Positions 858-18,702 of a DNA stretch of 64,000 nt are shown piece after piece (the stretch's first letter is position 1; every line of letters starts with the position of its first letter). The stretch lies in NCBI GenBank assembly GCA_003660235.1, contig QGON01000058.1, forward strand, positions 1 to 64,000, given 5' to 3'. The stretch comes from a bacterium endosymbiont of Escarpia laminata. Its GTDB lineage: Bacteria; Pseudomonadota; Gammaproteobacteria; Chromatiales; Chromatiaceae. The translations under genes and the position numbers were made by a program. The notes under the pieces are model-generated. The model saw only the letters and a list, made by a program, of their open reading frames with translations. It had not been told where the DNA came from and did not search any database.

Positions 858-2354
858 TTAGGCATTTTCGAGTTCCTGATGGAATCTGAACCAACAATCG
901 GTTAGCCATTGGCTCTGTGTTTGGTCTGGCTGGGGAGCTTCTCCGGCTTTTTCGAGTGCCTGTTCGTTCGGTAGGACGATACGTTTGGGTTTTGTGTCTC
1001 CATTATAAAAAGTGTTGTCGTAGATGCGCCGGAGTTTGTTACTCCATCCAGGCAGTCGGTTGATGCGCCCCAGAAACTGGTTGCTCTCCCTGGGGTTTCT
1101 GACGCCGTTGTCCCGGCAATAACGAGCATAGGCGGTGTAAAGTTGCTGGCTGCCGCAGGGGATCACCGGATAACCTGCCTCCCCGTTCAACCAGTCATCC
1201 ATAAAACGCTCTTCACTGGGTTTTGACAGGTTGATGAGCTCGCGCTTGGCTTCTGTCATCGGTGGGCGTTTCTTGGGGTGGAAATCCCCCAGATCGAGGT
1301 GGAGCAGGTAGTAATAGAAGGCGGCGACACCGCCATTTTCTATTTGTGTCCAAACTTCATCGTAGAATTTTTCGCCGAGGGCGGGTGGTGTCCAGATGAC
1401 AAGGTGACGCCGGTCATCGTTATCAAGTGGCAGGGGTTGCCCTTCATTCGATAGGTAGATGATGTTGACCTGGTTGCGCTGACGATAGGCTGCGACGTTT
1501 TTCGGGTTGACGCGGATCCACTCGCCGGTGACCAGCTCTTTGAGTTCGTTTTTGATATGCCACATTTCGGCACGGGTCACGACCTCTTCGGCCAGTATGA
1601 ATAGTTTTGAATCTACCCAGTCCGAGTTAAATTTGTCTTCTAACCCGCGCTGGTTGAGTACGGTTGAATATTCGCCGTAGATTTTCGCCAGGGTTTGAAA
1701 TACGGCTGATTTACCTGTGCCCTGCGGTCCGTGCATGATGACGGCGCTGGACATCTTCGCGCCTGGATGTTGCAGCGGATAGGCCATCCAACGTAGCACC
1801 CAGGCGGCTATTTCGGCGTCTCCGCATAGGTAGTGCAGCAGGTCGACGATGTGCTGACAGTCTCCCTCGACCGGTTCCATTGGCCAGCCATCCCATGTGT
1901 TGAGTTTTACTGCTTTGTCGCTGCCACCTGGGTCGAATCCGACTTGATCGAGGTAGTAGGCGCCACGGGTGACCCATACCGGGTGGCGCTTTATATCGTC
2001 ACCGCGCACACCGGCAGGCAGGATGGATACCATCTGCTCTTTCATGACGACTTTGTTGGTCCACTGGTCAAACAGGTATTTGCCCGTTCCGTCATCGAGA
2101 GGGACGAACCGCTCTATTGTTTCATCGAGAGAGAGTATCGATACAGCATCACGGCGAGAGTCCTCCCCCTCCCCCTTGTTACGCGCCACACCGCCTAGTG
2201 CGGCCTGCCCAATATTCCAACCTGCATCCATGATGGAGGTCTCGATCTGGGTTCGCACGATTTGCCCTCCCCCATCAGGAAACGCCATCAGATCGTTGTA
2301 GTCGGTTAGTTTTTTGTTGTTTCGATCTGATGGAAACAACGGTTTTTGCACCAT
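858..2354 (-). CDS. Phage/plasmid primase-helicase, D5/DUF5906-type ATPase
   Basis: 498-residue SF3-like helicase of the phage P4/poxvirus D5 type, expected to unwind the element's origin. Walker A GPQGTGKS is at residues 209-216. Downstream come an acidic Walker B-like FILAEE, an NPK sensor-like stretch and a DDRRH motif. The ATG at 2354 lies inside the end of the upstream Toprim gene (49-bp overlap, -1 frame); an internal ATG at 2288 falls just after that gene's stop. The first residues include LTDYNDL, a motif normally found at the C-terminal end of Toprim primases, so the two genes may be one protein split by a frameshift. It is the last gene of the leftward replication operon. Confidence 0.88.
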   Translation of the reverse strand: MVQKPLFPSDRNNKKLTDYNDLMAFPDGGGQIVRTQIETSIMDAGWNIGQAALGGVARNKGEGEDSRRDAVSILSLDETIERFVPLDDGTGKYLFDQWTNKVVMKEQMVSILPAGVRGDDIKRHPVWVTRGAYYLDQVGFDPGGSDKAVKLNTWDGWPMEPVEGDCQHIVDLLHYLCGDAEIAAWVLRWMAYPLQHPGAKMSSAVIMHGPQGTGKSAVFQTLAKIYGEYSTVLNQRGLEDKFNSDWVDSKLFILAEEVVTRAEMWHIKNELKELVTGEWIRVNPKNVAAYRQRNQVNIIYLSNEGQPLPLDNDDRRHLVIWTPPALGEKFYDEVWTQIENGGVAAFYYYLLHLDLGDFHPKKRPPMTEAKRELINLSKPSEERFMDDWLNGEAGYPVIPCGSQQLYTAYARYCRDNGVRNPRESNQFLGRINRLPGWSNKLRRIYDNTFYNGDTKPKRIVLPNEQALEKAGEAPQPDQTQSQWLTDCWFRFHQELENA

Positions 2355-3193
2355 GCACCATTGACTGCCAGCGCTGCGGCTTCTGCAGCTATGCAGCCTG
2401 GATTGCCGTCTGTCAGGTAGTCGTCATCGGCACAGATAAGTATTTTGGTGGATTTGTAGGCGGCCCGAATGGCTTGCGCGACCGGCAGGAGGTTACCGGC
2501 ATCGTATGCCACGGCGACTGGTCTGCCAGTCTCCTCATGCAGGGTGGCTGCGGTGGCGTAGCCTTCGGCGATCAGCAGGATATCTACGGGCGATCCAATC
2601 AAGTGGAACTTGCCGCGCTTGTTGAGTCCTGCCGGCCAGTATTGTTTCTCCAGCTTTTTGCCGCGATCCTTACCCCGGATGATCTGCAATCCCCAGACCC
2701 GCCCTGCGGTATCGCACATGGGGATTGCCATGGTGCCGTTACCCGATGGGGCGAACCTGACGCCGTGGGCTTGGCAGTGTTTCTTGTCGAGGTAGTCAGA
2801 GTGGCCGTCTGGTAGATACTGGCGCCAGGCGTTCGCGGCTTTTGCCCCCGCCTTCGCGGCCTGGGCTGCGCGCATGGCCTTTGCCCGTTTGGCATTCTCT
2901 CTGTGTCGGGCTGCAATCGCCTGGCGTTGTTCCTGGGTCAGCGCCTTGGCCTTTTTGCCCAGCGCAACCTTCATCTTGCCGGAGTCGTTGCCCCGGTAGA
3001 TCCCGTAGCTGCCGACGATGTAGAGATCACCCTCGATGCTGATATCGGATAGCCAGTACCAGCCGCGTTTTTCCCTGTCGCCTTTGATCTCAAAACAGCG
3101 GACTGGCTTATGCGTGCCGATCTCCAGGTGCTGAACCTCAAGCCCCGCACTCTGCAGCTGATCCATCACCTCGTCGTAGTTGGCCCAGCTCAT
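2306..3193 (-). CDS. Toprim-domain DNA primase
   Basis: 295-residue phage-type primase with a C-terminal Toprim fold. The catalytic glutamate is in LLIAEGYATAATL (E210) and the DxD motif in LICADDD (D256-D258). Residues 1-80 form an unrecognised N-terminal domain, and 80-125 is an Ala/Lys/Arg-rich linker. It should make RNA primers for the neighbouring helicase. The frame leaves the homologous path after GAWCK and ends in KNRCFHQIETTKN, while the expected continuation is encoded in the -1 frame. This suggests a frameshift or slippage at the A5 run around 2345. An alternative is that the two are simply separate overlapping genes. Confidence 0.88.
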   Translation of the reverse strand: MSWANYDEVMDQLQSAGLEVQHLEIGTHKPVRCFEIKGDREKRGWYWLSDISIEGDLYIVGSYGIYRGNDSGKMKVALGKKAKALTQEQRQAIAARHRENAKRAKAMRAAQAAKAGAKAANAWRQYLPDGHSDYLDKKHCQAHGVRFAPSGNGTMAIPMCDTAGRVWGLQIIRGKDRGKKLEKQYWPAGLNKRGKFHLIGSPVDILLIAEGYATAATLHEETGRPVAVAYDAGNLLPVAQAIRAAYKSTKILICADDDYLTDGNPGCIAAEAAALAVNGAWCKNRCFHQIETTKN

Positions 3194-3700: not shown

Positions 3701-4271
3701 TGACTTTCCCTATCTGTTTATCGTCGATTGTGTCCCGCAGGCGATGGAACAACTCATCCACCGTGCCGTGATTGGAGACCACCGGATCACCACCGACACG
3801 ACCGACACCGAACTCACTCTCATGCTCCCGCACAGTAGGCGCCTGCCGGCGGTCGAGGTGTATCACCACCCCGCCCCGTTCCCGAATCCAGTTGGCCTCG
3901 TTATCGAAACGGACATCAGAGAACACGCAGCCATGCCAGCGCACACCCTGAGATTGATAGGTATCCCGGTAACGCTGCAGGGTGACACCGGCCACATGCA
4001 GCCAGACATCCGGGTGAACAAGGTGGCGGCCCCATTGGCTGCCAATCGTTTGAAACAGAAAGCGTGGGGAACAGCCCAGTTCCGGGATGAGTTCTTCCTT
4101 TTCAGTCCCGTCCATCTGTGACGGGGTGAGGTTGAACATCTCCTGAACAGCCTGTTTGAACGGTGCGGCGAACGATAACGGCGACAGCTCATACCAATCC
4201 TTAATAAAACGCGCGGCCGTGTCTTTGCCTACACGCGCCTTGCCCGCCAACCCGATAATCAACTCACTCAT
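3690..4271 (-). CDS. Deoxynucleoside monophosphate kinase, phage type
   Basis: 193-residue P-loop kinase similar to T4 gene 1 type dNMP kinases, which phosphorylate dNMPs to dNDPs for viral replication. The P-loop is GLAGKARVGKDTAARFIKDW at residues 7-26. A later VFSDVRFDNEANWIRE segment matches the family's nucleotide-binding region. It follows a 68-residue gene by about 20 bases and overlaps ssb, so it is part of the leftward operon. Its presence argues for an element that supplies its own nucleotide precursors. Confidence 0.85.
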   Translation of the reverse strand: MSELIIGLAGKARVGKDTAARFIKDWYELSPLSFAAPFKQAVQEMFNLTPSQMDGTEKEELIPELGCSPRFLFQTIGSQWGRHLVHPDVWLHVAGVTLQRYRDTYQSQGVRWHGCVFSDVRFDNEANWIRERGGVVIHLDRRQAPTVREHESEFGVGRVGGDPVVSNHGTVDELFHRLRDTIDDKQIGKVNGQ

Positions 4272-4292
4272 TAAAACACCCCAACAGACGAC

Positions 4293-8581: not shown

Positions 8582-8785
8582 ATGAAACGATTCATGCAGC
8601 AGCACTACAAACCCAGCAGCGAGGAGATGCGCCTGATCTCCCAGTTGGTTTTCAACCAACGACGCCTGGCCAATCACGAACGCAAGCAGGCCGAACGGCA
8701 TGGCAACGGCACCGTCGTTAAATTCCCTCGTAGCAGTCGCCAAATCATCGGCGCTGATCTGCCCACCGGACCGGAGGCAGCGTGA
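8582..8785 (+). CDS. Small basic phage protein, 67 aa
   Basis: Begins MKRFMQQHYKPSSEEMRLIS; basic and helical, with FNQRRLANHERKQAERHG in the centre. AGGAG lies upstream. Its TGA overlaps the ATG of the next gene (TGATG), so the two are coupled. No family recognised. Confidence 0.65.
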   Translation: MKRFMQQHYKPSSEEMRLISQLVFNQRRLANHERKQAERHGNGTVVKFPRSSRQIIGADLPTGPEAA

Positions 8786-9009: not shown

Positions 9010-9731
9010 TGGATGCCAGCGCAACACTGCCGGCGCAGCTACAGGAGACCGAGACCTGCCACTGCTGTGTCAGATTCGAATCACCGCAGCCCACACTGGA
9101 CATCCACGCCCGCACCTGGTCGGTGAGGTGTCCCTGTGGCAACCAGACCGAAGAGTTCGACGAGATCACCGCCGCCATCGCGGCCTGGAATCTACAGAAT
9201 GCGTCTGATGGGGACTGGATACTGACCCACTCCGGTCAGCCCGTTTATCCCATTGACCCATCGCATTCGAGCATATTCATTGAGGATATCGCCCACGCAT
9301 TGAGCCACATCTGTCGCTTCAACGGCCATGTCGACCGGTTTTACAGCGTGGCGCAACATAGCGTATTGGTCGCCTTAAACGTTCCCAGGGAGGACGCACT
9401 GAGCGCACTGCTACACGATGCGACAGAGGCCTATATCAGCGACGTGACCACCCCGGTAAAACGCAATCTGAAGGGCTACAAAGAGATAGAGCAGCGCTTG
9501 TGGACTGTCATCGCCGGACGCTACCAGGTGCCACCTGCCCTGCCTTCATCGGTTAAACACGCCGATCTGCGCGCACTGGCAACAGAACGCCGGGACCTGA
9601 TGCCGGCGCATGCGGCAGAGTGGACCGCCCTGGAGGGGATCGAACCCTACGAACAACCCATCAACCCACTTCCACCCACACTCGCCAAAACTCAGTGGAT
9701 GGATATGTATGAGGATCTGACCAATGGATGA
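9009..9731 (+). CDS. HD phosphohydrolase with N-terminal Lar-like zinc ribbon
   Basis: 240 residues in two parts. Residues 15-61 carry CHCC and CPCG pairs ending AAIAAWN, the signature of Lar-type restriction-alleviation zinc ribbons. Residues 75-240 are an HD-domain hydrolase with H117, H136-D137 (ALLHDATEAYISD) and a later VKHADL aspartate, resembling YfbR-type 5'-deoxynucleotidases. The likely substrates are nucleotides (inference). The fusion is unusual and could be anti-restriction plus nucleotide-pool control. Start and stop are both coupled to neighbours. Confidence 0.78.
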   Translation: MDASATLPAQLQETETCHCCVRFESPQPTLDIHARTWSVRCPCGNQTEEFDEITAAIAAWNLQNASDGDWILTHSGQPVYPIDPSHSSIFIEDIAHALSHICRFNGHVDRFYSVAQHSVLVALNVPREDALSALLHDATEAYISDVTTPVKRNLKGYKEIEQRLWTVIAGRYQVPPALPSSVKHADLRALATERRDLMPAHAAEWTALEGIEPYEQPINPLPPTLAKTQWMDMYEDLTNG

Positions 9732-12910: not shown

Positions 12911-13276
12911 ATGACAGCCATCACTTTTCAAGAATACTGCGAAGACATTCTGGATCAGCATACCGCGCTGATGAGCATCGAGGAGCGCAGACAAGCATAC
13001 GCTGGTTACCGCAAGATGGTGGCCCCGAAAGCAAAAACTGAGCGCCACCCTGACGCAAAGCTGAAGCTGGCGGAACTGAGAGCAAAGGTTGAGCGGTTTA
13101 TGGTTTCTCAGAAGGTCACGATTGAACGCAACGCGGGCAAAGATCTTTCGATTGCAACAGCGTTCGTAGAGCAGGCAGAGACGGCACTGAACGGCAAAGC
13201 CAAGAAGGCCGATTTTCTTGCACTGATCACGCTTAACAGCGAAGCCAGCCGTCACATCAACGGACAGATGAAATGA
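12911..13276 (+). CDS. Cassette hypothetical protein, 121 aa
   Basis: Begins MTAITFQEYCEDILDQHTAL and is almost wholly helical and lysine-rich in its middle. It has its own promoter and AAGG ribosome site. Its stop overlaps the next start (ATGA). No family recognised. It is co-transcribed with an HTH gene and lies beside the CRISPR-repeat-like RNA, the neighbourhood expected of an anti-CRISPR or toxin-antitoxin operon, but this is association only. Confidence 0.6.
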   Translation: MTAITFQEYCEDILDQHTALMSIEERRQAYAGYRKMVAPKAKTERHPDAKLKLAELRAKVERFMVSQKVTIERNAGKDLSIATAFVEQAETALNGKAKKADFLALITLNSEASRHINGQMK

Positions 13277-13701
13277 AAGCTGCGGAGCAGGCGAAAGCAG
13301 AGGGGCTGAAAAGCCTCTCCCAGGTTTCCGAAATGACCGGGGTCAGTTTGCAGACCCTCGGCAACTGGGCAAAGAACAAGCCAGCGCTTTTTAGTGTAGT
13401 GCTGGCTGGATGCAAAGCAACTCAAGGGGCAATAGAAATGAAAAGAACTACAGCGGCAATAGTAAGCGAACTGGGCGTGGTCGCACTCGTAAAAACAAAC
13501 GGCAAAAATGGAGAAAATGTCCGTTACGGCTTCAACTTAACAAACAATGCGCTTGACGCGAACAGAGAAAAAGACCTGGTGTCAGTGGGTGAAGGGAAGA
13601 TCAGCAGGGCAAAAAAATATCTAGCCGATGATGAGCGGATGGAGTGTGTAGATTCGGGGTATTGCGAGGACGGATCGGCCACGCTTGAAGCAAACGATTG
13701 A
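13273..13701 (+). CDS. HTH DNA-binding cassette protein, 142 aa
   Basis: The N-terminal SLSQVSEMTGVSLQTLGNWA is a clear helix-turn-helix, followed by KNKPALFSVVLAGC, a pattern seen in small phage proteins. A C-terminal lysine/aspartate-rich tail has no match. It overlaps the preceding gene by four bases and ends at a strong hairpin. It could autoregulate the operon, as anti-CRISPR-associated (Aca) proteins do; that comparison rests on context only. Confidence 0.62.
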   Translation: MKAAEQAKAEGLKSLSQVSEMTGVSLQTLGNWAKNKPALFSVVLAGCKATQGAIEMKRTTAAIVSELGVVALVKTNGKNGENVRYGFNLTNNALDANREKDLVSVGEGKISRAKKYLADDERMECVDSGYCEDGSATLEAND

Positions 13702-13706
13702 AAAAG

Positions 13707-13733
13707 AAAAGCCTCCATAAAATGGAGGCTTTT
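13707..13733 (-). terminator. Intrinsic terminator, usable from both sides
   Basis: AAAAGCCTCCA, loop TAAAA, TGGAGGCTTTT forms an 11-bp stem. On the minus strand it is followed by TTTTCTTTTTC, a good uridine tract, so it ends the repeat-like small RNA. On the plus strand it closes the 142-aa gene. Confidence 0.88.
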
Positions 13734-13759
13734 CTGAGCTGCCTATGCGGCAGTGTAAC
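13731..13759 (-). repeat. I-F repeat-like unit 1 (near-consensus)
   Basis: On the minus strand it reads GTTACACTGCC, GCATA loop, GGCAGCTCAGAAA. Relative to the type I-F consensus there is a single inserted A. The Cas6f (Csy4) stem CTGCC/GGCAG and the AGAAA handle end are intact. Confidence 0.75.
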
Positions 13760-13772
13760 TGATTAGCTACCT

Positions 13773-13800
13773 TTTCTGAGCTGCTTGTTCAGCAGTGAGG
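13773..13800 (-). repeat. I-F repeat-like unit 2 (diverged, stem conserved)
   Basis: Minus strand: CCTCACTGCT, loop GAACA, AGCAGCTCAGAAA. About 22 of 28 positions agree with the type I-F consensus; the stem keeps five pairs through a C-G to U-A change. The loop and first two bases have drifted. Confidence 0.65.
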
Positions 13801-13802
13801 TG

Positions 13803-13831
13803 AAAATAGCAAGTCATCTTACTTATTGCAA
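13803..13831 (-). promoter_or_regulatory. Promoter of the small RNA with embedded repressor operator
   Basis: On the minus strand TTGCAA (13831-13826), a 17-base spacer and TATTTT (13808-13803) form a good sigma-70 promoter. The spacer is almost filled by GTAAGATGACTTGC (13822-13809), matching the GTAAG-N4-CTTAC operator at 9 of 10 defined bases. A start 6-8 bases past the -10 would place the RNA 5' end inside the first repeat unit. Confidence 0.65.
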
Positions 13832-13856
13832 GCGGGAAGGTAGGCGATGGCTGATA

Positions 13857-13929
13857 CACATAACGCCTGCAATCACCCGTGCGAAAGGAGCGTAGCGACT
13901 GTAGCATCGGGTGCATTGCATTGTTATGC
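13857..13929 (-). repeat. attC-like site B
   Basis: Minus strand begins GCATAACAAT and ends GGCGTTATGT. Inner arms TGCAATGCACCCG and CGGGTGATTGCA pair with one extrahelical G on the TAACAA side, the classical attC asymmetry. This is the best-formed site of the array. Confidence 0.85.
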
Positions 13930-14313
13930 CTTTTTGCTCATGTTTGGAGTAACTGTTCTATGCCACTTTTTATGACACTCAGGGCACAAAAAGGACTTTG
14001 GCCATTTTTCAGATTCATCTCCAAAAAGATGCGTTGGTGCCCAATGATGTTGTTCTGCTCCTTCCTTGTCGCATACCTCACAAATAAATGGCAGCAATCT
14101 AGGATAAAGCTCTTTGATTTCTATATTAGATTTCTCTACCGCTTTGCGTTTAGCAAAGCCTGGAATTCTTTTGCCGCAATTCAAACAATAAAAAGGGTAT
14201 TTAGGGTTACCCCCTGCATCAACGTAGTGACCCACGCCCCAACCAGTTGCACCACAATGCTTGCATGGGTGATCTGGATAATTAATTTCATTTTTCCAAG
14301 AGGTATTAACCAT
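13924..14313 (-). CDS. HNH-like zinc endonuclease in a cassette
   Basis: 129 residues from ATG 14313 (AGGA nine bases upstream; an upstream ATG at 14334 is possible). Cysteine pairs CKHC and CLNC form an N-terminal zinc site. CEVC..AEQHHWAP..SFLCPECHKKWH is an HNH-type metal site. Its TAA stop lies inside TAACAA of attC site B, the canonical position for a cassette gene. It is the only cassette ORF with the polarity that the attC sites predict. Its start codon is interlocked with the next gene's start (CATG at 14311-14314). Confidence 0.7.
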   Translation of the reverse strand: MVNTSWKNEINYPDHPCKHCGATGWGVGHYVDAGGNPKYPFYCLNCGKRIPGFAKRKAVEKSNIEIKELYPRLLPFICEVCDKEGAEQHHWAPTHLFGDESEKWPKSFLCPECHKKWHRTVTPNMSKKA

Positions 14314-14524
14314 GAAGAAATGTCCTTTTTGCAATAGTTCTGATGTTGGTTATTCATACGGAACTCATCCAGACGGCAGAGAACTATCATTTATCGCCTG
14401 TGGTGGATGTGGCGCCCGTGGCCCAGTTAGAACATATGGCAGTATATATGATGATGACGAATCAGAGGCATCTTGGAATGCTCGCGCAATTGATGCAGCA
14501 CTGAGACCTTTTTTAGAGGCATAA
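14312..14524 (+). CDS. Lar-type restriction-alleviation zinc ribbon, 70 aa
   Basis: MKKCPFCNSSDVGYSYGTHP...CGGCGARGP...ASWNARAIDAA is the complete Lar signature (two cysteine pairs and a W-N motif). Lar proteins of Rac-like prophages relieve type I restriction by enhancing methylation. AGAGGT precedes the ATG. Its TAA overlaps the outer box of attC site C. It is divergent from the HNH-like gene and shares start-codon bases with it. Confidence 0.82.
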   Translation: MKKCPFCNSSDVGYSYGTHPDGRELSFIACGGCGARGPVRTYGSIYDDDESEASWNARAIDAALRPFLEA

Positions 14525-16587: not shown

Positions 16588-17553
16588 ATGAAAATGCACG
16601 AGGCGATGGATCGCGTCAGAAACGTGATGAGATTCAAGCATCTGTCTATCAGAACAGAGAAATCCTACCTGCACTGGATTGGTAGGTACGGGCGCTGGTG
16701 CGCGAAACATCCAGACGGGACACACGCAGACAAACTGCGCGGTTATCTCACTCATCTGGCTGTTGATCGTCACGTCTCAAAATCGACACAGCACCAGGCA
16801 TTGAACGCTATAGTTTTCCTCTACCGGCAGGCACTTGATATTGATATCGGAGATATCGGCGCGTTCCGTCCGGCAACCGCACCTAAACGCCTGCCCGTTG
16901 TGCTCTCTCAGCACGAGGTAGCAACACTCCTGCACCACATGCGCGGCACCCCTAAACTGGTTGCGTCTCTACTCTACGGCAGTGGTTTACGACTGAACGA
17001 GGCGCTATCGCTACGCATCCAGGACGTTGATCTGCAACGACACCTGATAACTGTCAGGTCAGGCAAGGGCGACAAAGATCGCGCCGTCATGCTGCCGTCA
17101 TCACTAATCGACGACCTTACTCTGCAAATCCATCAATCTGAGATCACCCACAAACGTGACCTGGCTAATGGATTCGGGGAGGCCTACCTGCCAAACGCTA
17201 TCGAGCGTAAATACCCCAACGCCTCGAAAGCGACAGGTTGGCAGTATCTGTTTCAGTCCACCCGGATCGCAGCCTGCCCCCGCACTGGAGTAATGCGCCG
17301 GCACCATTTGCACGACTCTGCCGTGAGCAAAGCGATCAAGCAGGCTACAAACAGAGCGGGCATTAAAAAGCGGGTTGGCGCACACATTTTGAGACACAGT
17401 TTCGCGACCCATCTATTAGAGAGTGGAATCGATATCCGTACCATCCAGCAGCTACTAGGTCACGCCCATGTCAGCACGACGCAAATCTATACTCACGTCG
17501 CCACCACTGGCGCTGCTGGGGCAGTCAGCCCACTGGAGCGACTGGCCGGATGA
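16588..17553 (+). CDS. intI: Integron integrase
   Basis: 321-residue tyrosine recombinase. Catalytic residues are present: R135 (GSGLRLNEAL), H266 and R269 (HILRHSFATH), H292 and Y301 (LLGHAHVSTTQIYTH). The insert at residues 205-245 (ERKYPNASKATGWQYLF followed by PRTGVMRRHHLH) is the IntI-specific patch that separates integron integrases from other tyrosine recombinases. GAGG lies ten bases before the ATG. It should recombine attI with folded single-stranded attC sites and probably built the adjacent array. It is oriented away from the cassettes, as usual, but lies in line with the phage operon and the phage int. Confidence 0.93.
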   Translation: MKMHEAMDRVRNVMRFKHLSIRTEKSYLHWIGRYGRWCAKHPDGTHADKLRGYLTHLAVDRHVSKSTQHQALNAIVFLYRQALDIDIGDIGAFRPATAPKRLPVVLSQHEVATLLHHMRGTPKLVASLLYGSGLRLNEALSLRIQDVDLQRHLITVRSGKGDKDRAVMLPSSLIDDLTLQIHQSEITHKRDLANGFGEAYLPNAIERKYPNASKATGWQYLFQSTRIAACPRTGVMRRHHLHDSAVSKAIKQATNRAGIKKRVGAHILRHSFATHLLESGIDIRTIQQLLGHAHVSTTQIYTHVATTGAAGAVSPLERLAG

Positions 17554-17587: not shown

Positions 17588-17938
17588 ATGCTACTGACCA
17601 AAAAACAGGCGGCTGAAGAGCTGGCAGTCAGCCCGAGGACTATTCAGCGGATTATTGACTCCGGCGCTCTGAGAGTGATAAAGGTGACCGAATCAAAAAA
17701 GGGGGAGCGCATCCACCCGGATGATCTCGCCGCATACATACAGGGGCAGAGATGGCAATCAGGCGGCACAAAAACGGCTGGGAGGTCGATGTCACCAGCC
17801 GCAGGGCAGGCGTCAGGATTAAGAGAATTGTTGGGACTAAAAAAGAAGCCACTGCGCTCGAAGCGGAGATCCGCCAGCAAATCATCAGAGACACCCTCGT
17901 TGACCGTGGTATCGAGCAAGCCCTTGATAGATACCTGA
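17588..17938 (+). CDS. Excisionase-like HTH protein
   Basis: The first 55 residues, MLLTKKQAAEELAVSPRTIQ through ERIHPDDLAAYIQG, form a MerR/Xis-type winged helix-turn-helix (HTH_17). The rest is low-complexity and lies over the first 187 bases of int in another frame. Such proteins direct excision or activate int. The long overlap suggests either tight coupling or lost termination of an originally shorter gene. Confidence 0.68.
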   Translation: MLLTKKQAAEELAVSPRTIQRIIDSGALRVIKVTESKKGERIHPDDLAAYIQGQRWQSGGTKTAGRSMSPAAGQASGLRELLGLKKKPLRSKRRSASKSSETPSLTVVSSKPLIDT

Positions 17939-18702
17939 AGGGCGAAGCTACTGGACTGAAGAGCTACAAGAGCCTGTGGTCGATCTCCCGCGCTATAATG
18001 CAATACATTGAGGGGCGCACGTTTAGCCAGGTCGGCGAAGTGGCCGACAATATCAAAACCACAATGCTGGCTGACGGGCTGGCAAAAGCCACGATTAATC
18101 GCCGCCTCGCACTACTCCGTCGCCTCTGCAATCTCGCGTTCGATTGGGGATGGACAAGCCAGAACCAATCCCGTCGGGTCAAGCTCCTACCAGGCGAGAC
18201 AGAGCGCCACTACTACCTGACACCAGACCAGGTAGAATCCATAGCGGCAAACTGCCCGCACACTGGAGACCTGATCAGGATTGCTGCCTACACGGGACTA
18301 AGGAGAGGGGAGTTGCTGGGCCTGAAACCTGACCAAATCAGCGAGCAATTTATAATACTGGGCACTGACACGAAAACCGCTCGCCCAAGACTCGTACCGA
18401 TCCCTGAGCAGATTGCACAGATTGTTGATCATTTGCCGTTACCACTGCCACCGAATACCAATCACCTACTACGCACGGAATTCGAGGCTGCCAGAGCATC
18501 AGCAGGTATGCAGCACATCCGGTTTCACGACCTCAGACACACCTATGCCAGCCTACTGGCTCAGGCAGGGGCTACGTTGCATTTGATAGGAAAGGCGATG
18601 GGACACTCCACCCCGACAATGACGAGCCGCTATGCGCATTTAGTGAGCGACAACCTGCTGGATCTCGCTCGTCGCCTCGATGGGTTGGGGGCGGCTAAAT
18701 GA
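17752..18702 (+). CDS. Phage-type tyrosine integrase
   Basis: 316 residues with an N-terminal arm-binding domain (MAIRRHKNGWEVDVTSRRAG) and a complete catalytic domain: R184 (AAYTGLRRGELLG), H259-R262 (FHDLRHTYASLLA), H285 and Y294 (GHSTPTMTSRYAHL). It lies 75 bases from the 3' end of an intact tRNA-Leu gene on the opposite strand, the classical attL arrangement. It should integrate and excise the element at that tRNA. Confidence 0.9.
   Translation: MAIRRHKNGWEVDVTSRRAGVRIKRIVGTKKEATALEAEIRQQIIRDTLVDRGIEQALDRYLKGEATGLKSYKSLWSISRAIMQYIEGRTFSQVGEVADNIKTTMLADGLAKATINRRLALLRRLCNLAFDWGWTSQNQSRRVKLLPGETERHYYLTPDQVESIAANCPHTGDLIRIAAYTGLRRGELLGLKPDQISEQFIILGTDTKTARPRLVPIPEQIAQIVDHLPLPLPPNTNHLLRTEFEAARASAGMQHIRFHDLRHTYASLLAQAGATLHLIGKAMGHSTPTMTSRYAHLVSDNLLDLARRLDGLGAAK

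What the first reader, a model, noticed from the sequence alone, without database searches (positions are those of the whole stretch)
13700..13831. Repressor-controlled small RNA built from two CRISPR type I-F repeat-like hairpins
Seen: two I-F repeat-like units 13 nt apart on the minus strand, one near-consensus with a single inserted base, one diverged but with a compensatory stem change (CTGCC/GGCAG to CTGCT/AGCAG). Directly upstream is a good sigma-70 promoter, directly downstream an intrinsic terminator, giving an RNA of about 95 nt with almost nothing else in it. Known: solitary CRISPR repeats in phages can act as RNA anti-CRISPRs (Racr) by capturing Cas6f and Cas7f subunits. Inferred: this is a two-unit Racr against a host type I-F system. 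The 13-nt gap excludes a normal CRISPR spacer.
Basis: partly seen in the sequence, partly recalled or inferred. Interest (0 to 1): 0.92.

Follow-up and report, generated by a model that had tools for sequence, protein, structure and literature searches.

The report
Prophage RNA copying host CRISPR self-repressor
A virus dormant in a bacterium carries a tiny RNA gene that looks like a shortened CRISPR guide and aims at the same switch that the bacterium seems to use to turn its own CRISPR immunity down, so it probably tricks the defence into silencing itself.

Summary
In detail: two type I-F repeat-like hairpins lie 13 nt apart on the minus strand, followed by a strong terminator.

The Racr-decoy reading misses the main point: the gap is a guide. 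Cas6f cuts in both hairpins would release a 42-nt mini-crRNA with an intact 8-nt handle and a 14-nt guide. The host genome has a complete type I-F system. Upstream of cas8f it carries its own two-repeat element, whose guide is identical at 13 of 14 positions; the one difference is at a flipped position (12). Both guides match a CC-PAM site next to the -35 box of the cas8f promoter. Two host spacers match this prophage perfectly with a CC PAM, so the lysogen needs an anti-CRISPR. An HTH-AcrIF8 gene converges on the RNA gene.

Best explanation: a prophage-borne mimic of the host cas autorepressor (CreR type), making Cascade repress its own operon. Across 132 clusters of such elements, guide lengths cluster at 14, 20 and 26 nt (6N-4), lengths reported to build Cascades that bind but do not cut. 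Phage mini-arrays of this kind were, as I recall, predicted by Shmakov 2023 (not held here). No expression or activity was tested.

The parts
13826..13831 (-). candidate -35 (TTGCAA)
   Evidence: read; 4 of 6; not found by the scan at its threshold
13803..13808 (-). candidate -10 (TATTTT, with TGn before it)
   Evidence: read; 4 of 6; start site not measured
13773..13800 (-). first I-F repeat-like unit (stem CTGCT/AGCAG, handle CTCAGAAA)
   Evidence: Rfam CRISPR-DR4 30.9 bits
13759..13772 (-). 14-nt guide AGGTAGCTAATCAG
   Evidence: 13/14 identical to the guide of the host cas-locus element; 11 of 12 non-flipped positions at the CC site in the host cas8f promoter
13731..13758 (-). second I-F repeat-like unit (stem CTGCC/GGCAG, one inserted A on its 5' side)
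   Evidence: Rfam CRISPR-DR4 34.8 bits
13739..13780 (-). predicted mini-crRNA after Cas6f cuts at the 3' base of both stems: 8-nt handle + 14-nt guide + hairpin
   Evidence: inferred from the I-F cleavage site described in PMC10651486; not measured
13705..13735 (-). intrinsic terminator, 14-bp stem
   Evidence: fold
13273..13701 (+). HTH-AcrIF8 fusion gene (142 aa), convergent; its stop codon lies just beyond the terminator stem
   Evidence: Pfam AcrF8 34.2 bits, cut-off 27, aa 59-123; PDB 6vqw_A AcrF8 E 3.6e-6; N-terminal regulator phrog_409 aa 1-78
14312..14524 (+). Lar-like restriction alleviation gene (neighbouring anti-defence gene)
   Evidence: phrog_599 E 4e-7; Pfam below its cut-off
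8693..8724 (+). protospacer, 32/32 match to a host spacer, PAM CC
17801..17832 (+). protospacer in the integrase gene, 32/32 match to a host spacer, PAM CC
   Evidence: integrase
8744..8775 (-). protospacer, 31/32 match to a host spacer, PAM CC
4245..4276 (+). protospacer, 30/32 match to a host spacer, PAM CC

Best explanation
The element is a prophage-encoded crRNA-like regulatory guide that mimics the host's own cas autorepressor (CreR type). A short minus-strand RNA of about 95 nt is made (inferred). Cas6f binds and cuts both hairpins and releases a 42-nt mini-crRNA: 8-nt handle, 14-nt guide, hairpin (inferred from anatomy). Cas8f, Cas5f, three Cas7f and Cas6f assemble on it (inferred; 14 nt is the reported lower limit of assembly). 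The complex binds the CC site beside the -35 box of the cas8f promoter, the site matched by the host's own element (match shown; binding inferred). It cannot fire Cas2/3 because the guide is 18 nt short. Cascade genes stay repressed and Cascade subunits are tied up, so the lysogen survives although its array holds perfect spacers against the prophage.
For: Anatomy and Rfam scores. Complete I-F operon, 76 array spacers, two of them perfect CC-PAM matches to the prophage. Host element between cas3 and cas8f with a guide 13/14 identical in register, conserved with its target in a same-genus genome. Target 11 of 12 at the cas8f promoter; shuffled guides do this in 23 of 200,000 and reach 13/14 to the host guide in 0 of 200,000. 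Class: 61 of 66 cas-linked elements score at least 10 of 12 against their own cas8f upstream region, versus 0.6% of comparisons with other regions. Spacing 42 gives a guide of 14 = 6x3-4, the rule and lower limit in PMC7296934; 6-nt periodicity over 132 clusters. Two more prophages, in Azonexus and Pantoea, have a guide that matches their hosts' cas8f upstream region. Adjacent HTH-AcrIF8 gene.
Against: No expression data. The promoter is a weak match. A 14-nt guide is at the lower limit, and Cascades shortened by 18 nt gave no measurable phage block in vivo in PMC7296934, so repression may be weak and subunit capture may matter as much. The neighbouring AcrIF8 domain, which I recall blocks Cascade's DNA binding, would oppose guided repression if made at the same time. 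Genome-wide, near matches to the guide are no commoner than to the reversed control (15 against 20 places); the case rests on where they lie. Of five genomes with an element away from cas genes and a cas8f, two show no match, and two of the three Azonexus guides do not reach 10. 77 guides from 54 viral contigs show no excess at 11 of 12 or better against 119 cas8f upstream regions, whose genomes were not known to be their hosts.
Confidence: 0.78

Rival explanations
1. Repeat-mimic decoy (Racr) of which two copies are joined: the RNA only sequesters Cas6f, Cas7f and perhaps the whole Cascade; the gap sequence is irrelevant.
For: Two intact I-F hairpins in a prophage; the RacrIF1 precedent; short guides give Cascades that do not interfere; some viral elements repeat nearly the same unit many times, for example six in L014.
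Against: The guide equals the host cas-locus guide at 13 of 14 and fits its promoter target. Different guides within one viral or unlinked element tend to share the seed but not the distal part, though copying followed by drift could do this too. A handle-bearing crRNA is not what RacrIF1 makes.
Confidence: 0.13
2. CreA-like antitoxin of a phage toxin module (CreTA or CrePA): the guide silences a neighbouring toxin promoter.
For: Two degenerate repeats with a partly matching guide is the CreA layout (recalled; partly in the passages); a type I-F CreTA is known in Acinetobacter (start of the abstract of PMC10097628); a short frame of about 33 codons lies just upstream (13922-13820, read).
Against: None of 8881 CC sites in the window matches the guide at 10 of 12 or better, while the cas8f promoter matches at 11 of 12.
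Confidence: 0.02
3. A decayed fragment of a CRISPR mini-array or of a host cas-locus element picked up by the phage, without function.
For: Weak promoter; one inserted base in the second repeat; a diverged first repeat.
Against: The terminator, both stems (one by a compensatory change) and the guide are intact. Outside the guide the sequence differs from the host element, so the guide was kept while the rest changed. Spacing falls on the 6-nt grid of the class.
Confidence: 0.05

Closest known systems
CreR / CRISPR-derived regulatory mini-arrays, and phage mini-arrays proposed to inhibit effector expression (Shmakov 2023 NAR, gkad495: not held, recalled; Liu 2023 Cell Host Microbe: seen only as a citation in the PMC12737573 passages)
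   Same: Two degenerate repeats around a short, partly matching guide aimed at the cas promoter. The host element found here (L002 9340-9475) is of this kind, and so, by guide, is the prophage element.
   Different: The prophage copy is outside the cas locus, has a 14-nt guide instead of about 18 in the host copy, has repeats of different sequence, and sits beside an HTH-AcrIF8 gene.
Racr / solitary repeat units (RacrIF1, PMC10651486)
   Same: Type I-F repeat mimicry, prophage-borne, host with the same subtype, next to an acr gene.
   Different: Two units, not solitary; the guide matches the cas promoter; the released RNA would carry the 5' handle. By my reading of its rules the published search would discard it.
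CreTA / CrePA antitoxin RNAs
   Same: crRNA-like layout with degenerate repeats.
   Different: No toxin promoter target found in the prophage.
Viral CRISPR mini-arrays against competing viruses (PMC11656645 passages)
   Same: Few repeats carried by a virus.
   Different: Most of those spacers target related viruses; here the guide has 14 nt and matches the host cas promoter.
AcrIF24 and other Acr-Aca dual proteins (PMC9638941, PMC9001735; search listing only)
   Same: A DNA-binding domain and an I-F anti-CRISPR in one protein, as in the neighbour 13273-13701.
   Different: Here the anti-CRISPR domain is AcrIF8-like; the dual function is untested.

Membership tests
Racr (RNA anti-CRISPR, solitary repeat unit) | repeat unit is solitary (no other repeat or partial repeat within 100 bp) | tested here: not met
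   two units with stems 42 nt apart, 21 of 28 identical; rule read
Racr (RNA anti-CRISPR, solitary repeat unit) | similar to the repeat of the host's CRISPR subtype | tested here: met
   CRISPR-DR4 34.8 and 30.9 bits; host repeat of the same type
Racr (RNA anti-CRISPR, solitary repeat unit) | trapped RNA lacks the 5' handle, so Cas5f and Cas8f are left out | tested here: not met
   by sequence only: the second fragment keeps CTCAGAAA; no biochemistry
Racr (RNA anti-CRISPR, solitary repeat unit) | inhibits CRISPR-Cas when expressed | not testable with these tools
   needs an assay
CreR-type cas autoregulatory guide | repeat-like units around a short guide | tested here: met
CreR-type cas autoregulatory guide | guide partly complementary, with PAM, to the promoter of the cas effector operon | tested here: met
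   11 of 12 with CC PAM next to the -35 box
CreR-type cas autoregulatory guide | encoded inside the cas locus of the host | tested here: not met
   the window copy is in a prophage; the cas-locus copy is a separate gene. So it works like a CreR but is not the host's CreR
CreR-type cas autoregulatory guide | represses cas transcription with Cascade | not testable with these tools
   needs a reporter assay
Phage mini-array inhibiting effector expression (Shmakov 2023, recalled) | phage-borne mini-array with a guide to the host cas promoter | tested here: met
   the paper itself was not readable
CreTA antitoxin (CreA) | guide targets the promoter of an adjacent toxin | tested here: not met
   0 of 8881 CC sites in the window at 10 of 12 or better
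Ordinary CRISPR array or mini-array | 32-nt spacers at 60-nt spacing | tested here: not met
   spacing 42 against 60 in the host array, 76 of 76 extracted spacers 32 nt
AcrIF8 (neighbour gene) | passes the curated Pfam cut-off of AcrF8 | tested here: met
   34.2 bits, cut-off 27

The most novel reading that the evidence does not exclude
Phages of type I-F hosts widely carry guides cut to 6N-4 lengths (14, 20, 26 nt) so that they build complete Cascades that bind but cannot fire Cas2/3, and they point these at the cas promoter by copying the host's autorepressor guide: a guide-based anti-CRISPR that turns the immune complex into its own repressor. The length grid is then a general signature of binding-only Cascade guides in hosts and phages.
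Probability: 0.45. Interest if true: 0.87.

Novelty: new member of a known kind. Interest (0 to 1): 0.76.

Why it matters
Here guide, host twin, promoter target, self-matching spacers and an adjacent acr gene lie in one genome, so phage hijacking of CRISPR autoregulation becomes directly testable. It also suggests that some repeat pairs, excluded by design from the Racr catalogue, are guides rather than failed solitary repeats. The 14/20/26-nt length grid gives a simple rule for recognising binding-only Cascade guides, in hosts and in viruses.

Tried and rejected
Pure Racr decoy: demoted when the gap proved to match the host cas locus. CreA antitoxin: no matching CC site in the prophage. Relatives of the RNA by DNA similarity in 210 genomes of the order: matches in 24 genomes, own included, but only the own copy matched along its length; the others for which I saw lengths cover 26-86 nt (the list was cut). 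I looked closely only at G078. Relatives of the HTH-AcrIF8 protein: 2 of 19 candidate viral stretches and 1 genome besides the own in 369, all three matching only within residues 1-50. Viral guides against 119 cas8f upstream regions: 77 guides from 54 loci; one at 12 (its matches are repeat DNA, an artefact) and one at 11, against 0.04 and 1.96 expected from shuffles; 38 at 10 against 22.9 expected, not interpreted. More prophage-host pairs in 369 genomes of the class: 7 genomes with a pair, own included; I took none further. Acr genes near viral elements: of 144 ORFs (up to three per element, chosen mechanically) around 49 clusters, 1 Aca2-like; no AcrIF among the 25 of 66 families shown, so no enrichment is claimed.

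Rows dropped before the length statistics: from 174 loci, 24 with a regular array in the held stretch, 4 others without a pair whose first unit has a strong handle, and L165 (unpaired stem); 145 kept. Periods 5.5 and 6.5 score nearly as high as 6 (R 0.43 and 0.45 against 0.46), because only about three steps are sampled. In one search, 11 near-identical guide pairs (10 in L014, 1 in L006) were left out.

Full report
WHAT IS THERE. On the minus strand two type I-F repeat-like hairpins lie at 13800-13773 and 13758-13731 (Rfam CRISPR-DR4, 30.9 and 34.8 bits, E 5e-5 and 3e-6 in a 501-base search; gathering score 35). The first keeps its stem by a C-G to T-A change, the second has one inserted A before the stem. 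A 14-bp terminator follows at 13735-13705, and the region folds far better than shuffles (z -6.3). The promoter is a weak match, 8 of 12 with a TGn extension, read by eye; the scan finds none at its threshold. The pair pattern occurs once in the 4.25-Mb genome.

HOST AND NEED. The part up to about 18.8 kb looks like a prophage early region running off the contig start: primase, dNMP kinase, DHH phosphoesterase, a phage-type regulator and two integrases, beside a tRNA-Leu. On contig C16 the genome has a type I-F operon, all six genes open and above the NCBIfam cut-offs: Cas1f, Cas3f, Csy1 (Cas8f), Csy2 (Cas5f), Csy3 (Cas7f) and Csy4 (Cas6f). Beside it lies an array from which I extracted 76 spacers, all of 32 nt, repeat GTTCACTGCCGTATAGGCAGCTCAGAAA (only the first 20 kb of C16 were read). 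Two of the 76 spacers match the prophage at 32/32, one at 31/32 and one at 30/32, all four with a CC PAM; the next best are 23/32 or less, without CC. A working I-F system should cut this lysogen, so some inhibition is expected.

THE GAP IS A GUIDE. If Cas6f cuts after each stem (the site described in PMC10651486), the second product is CTCAGAAA + AGGTAGCTAATCAG + hairpin, 42 nt, with stems 42 nt apart against 60 in the array. Searching the genome for CC plus this guide (positions 6 and 12 free, at most 2 mismatches) gave 15 places, the prophage's own copy included, no more than the reversed control (20); but two of them lie in the 383-nt cas3-cas8f intergenic region. One, L002:9375, is the guide of a host element: CTACCGCATAGGTAG-TTTAGAAA, then AGGTAGCTAATTAG..., then CTGCCGTATAGGCAG and, by eye, a terminator-like hairpin. 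The host guide equals the prophage guide at 13 of 14; the single difference is position 12, every sixth position being flipped out in Cascade (recalled). The other, CC at 9281-9282 followed by AGGTATCTTATTAG, adjoins the -35 box of the likely cas8f promoter (TTGACA 9280-9275, 17 nt, TATTAT; read). The prophage guide matches it at 11 of 12 non-flipped positions. Composition-preserving shuffles of the guide reach this in the intergenic region in 23 of 200,000 and reach 13/14 to the host guide in 0 of 200,000; no CC site of the window reaches 10 of 12 (0 of 8881), and in the first 20 kb of C16 only the promoter site does (1 of 2690). A same-genus genome, G078, has the same element, guide and target. 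Outside the guide, the prophage element and the host element differ.

THE CLASS. After dropping 24 loci with regular arrays, 4 more without a strong handle and L165, 172 pairs in 145 loci and 132 clusters remain. Stem spacing is highest at 48 and 54, with a smaller peak at 42, shoulders one or two bases short (46, 47, 52, 53) and one long (49), and few at 43-45, 50 and 51; weighted counts modulo 6 are 52, 18, 5, 6, 21 and 29 for residues 0 to 5. The 6-nt vector strength is 0.464; 0 of 20,000 draws from each of five smoothed versions of the same data reach it, and 21 odd spacings inside true arrays give 0.126. It holds in viral (0.44, 49 clusters), unlinked genomic (0.55, 15) and cas-linked (0.48, 70) elements; 35 of 49, 11 of 15 and 53 of 70 weighted clusters lie within one base of 42, 48 or 54. 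PMC7296934 (passages) reports for a type I-F1 Cascade that guide length L = 6N-4 for N Cas7f, that guides shortened by 6, 12 and 18 nt assemble with a lower limit of about 14 nt, and that none of them triggers Cas2/3. Spacings of 42, 48 and 54 are guides of 14, 20 and 26 nt.

WHAT THE CLASS TARGETS. For 66 cas-linked elements (the host's included; some are close relatives of each other) I scored the first guide against up to 760 nt upstream of cas8f, requiring CC; the element's own guide copy follows the handle, not CC, and cannot score. 61 of 66 reach at least 10 of 12 in their own region, 54 at least 11, two reach 9 and three 7; in other elements' regions 0.6% reach 10. These look like autoregulatory guides of the CreR kind. 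Of the 15 genomic loci without cas genes in the held stretch I searched the genomes of 14 (by its record title L157 shares its genome with L145): 4 have cas8f. In Azonexus R2A61 (L141; DNA methyltransferase and portal genes of phage type nearby) one of three guides matches the host element's own target site at 10 of 12, reached in the pool only by that same genome's region, L126; another shares its first eight bases with that site but scores 7. In Pantoea sp. 18069 (L192; integrase, endolysin, spanin and tail genes nearby) the guide matches at 11 of 12, reached by none of 119 pool regions. The guides in Azohydromonas (L145, L157) and Piscinibacter (L169) do not match. With the window that is 3 of 5 genomes. 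For viral contigs the hosts are unknown and a pool of 119 regions shows no excess at 11 or better. Within viral and unlinked elements, different guides of one element agree more at positions 1-5 (52-70% per position, against 27-47% between elements), and not clearly beyond position 10 (27 pairs, not independent, near-identical pairs left out). A kept seed is what a shared target predicts; copying followed by drift is the other possibility.

HOW IT MOST LIKELY WORKS. Shown: structure, guide identity with the host element, match to the cas8f promoter, self-matching spacers, neighbouring HTH-AcrIF8 gene (Pfam AcrF8 34.2 bits, cut-off 27; PDB 6vqw_A). Inferred: transcription, Cas6f processing, assembly of a three-Cas7f Cascade, binding to the promoter, and repression of the Cascade operon plus capture of subunits. 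A tension remains: AcrIF8, as I recall, blocks DNA binding by Cascade and would relieve guided repression, so the two may act at different times, for example the RNA in lysogeny and the protein in infection. The -18 length also gave no measurable phage block in the cited study, so capture of subunits may contribute as much as promoter repression.

COMPARISON AND NOVELTY. It works like a CreR and, by guide and location, is a phage-borne mimic of one. It fails the defining feature of a Racr (solitary repeat; PMC10651486, parts 1-3 of 9 read, passages), and by my reading of that survey's filter it would have been removed. In the listings and passages I saw (searches; passages) I met no description of such a phage element, but the closest paper, Shmakov 2023 (gkad495), is not held; from memory its abstract says that mini-arrays in phages could inhibit effector expression and that a type I-F1 mini-array was shown to regulate. 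I therefore file this as a new member of a known kind. A search for shortened type I-F spacers with Cas7 found no paper. Whether the 6N-4 length grid of regulatory and phage guides is in print I could not establish.

Noticed in passing
window 13273-13701 (+): 142-aa gene joining an N-terminal phage HTH (a small separate frame in viral loci L198 and L199) to an AcrIF8-like domain: a possible self-regulating anti-CRISPR fusion.
   Followed up: partly
window 858-3193 (-): Phage primase spread over two overlapping frames that match successive parts of the same profile (phrog_2249); described only, nothing mended.
   Followed up: no
window 16588-17553 and 17752-18702 (+): Two different integrases in a row beside tRNA-Leu; the first resembles an integron or Xer-type integrase by eye.
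   Followed up: no
L058 and L141: A viral contig and the Azonexus prophage carry four-unit elements whose first guides agree in the 20 bases compared apart from positions 6 and 19.
   Followed up: partly
L014 from 680, L006 from 7781: Viral elements with six and five I-F units at constant 44- and 48-nt spacing, some guides nearly identical; L014 (44) is off the 6-nt grid.
   Followed up: partly
L141 2403-3125, L192 3336-4136: The gene just upstream of the element is homologous in both prophages (47% identity over 189 columns; phrog_8351, unknown function); by eye L157 has a similar end too. Possibly a shared regulator or anti-defence gene.
   Followed up: partly
window 13825-13834 / 13864-13873: 10-nt inverted repeat, 90% complementary, overlapping the candidate -35; possible operator.
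   Followed up: no
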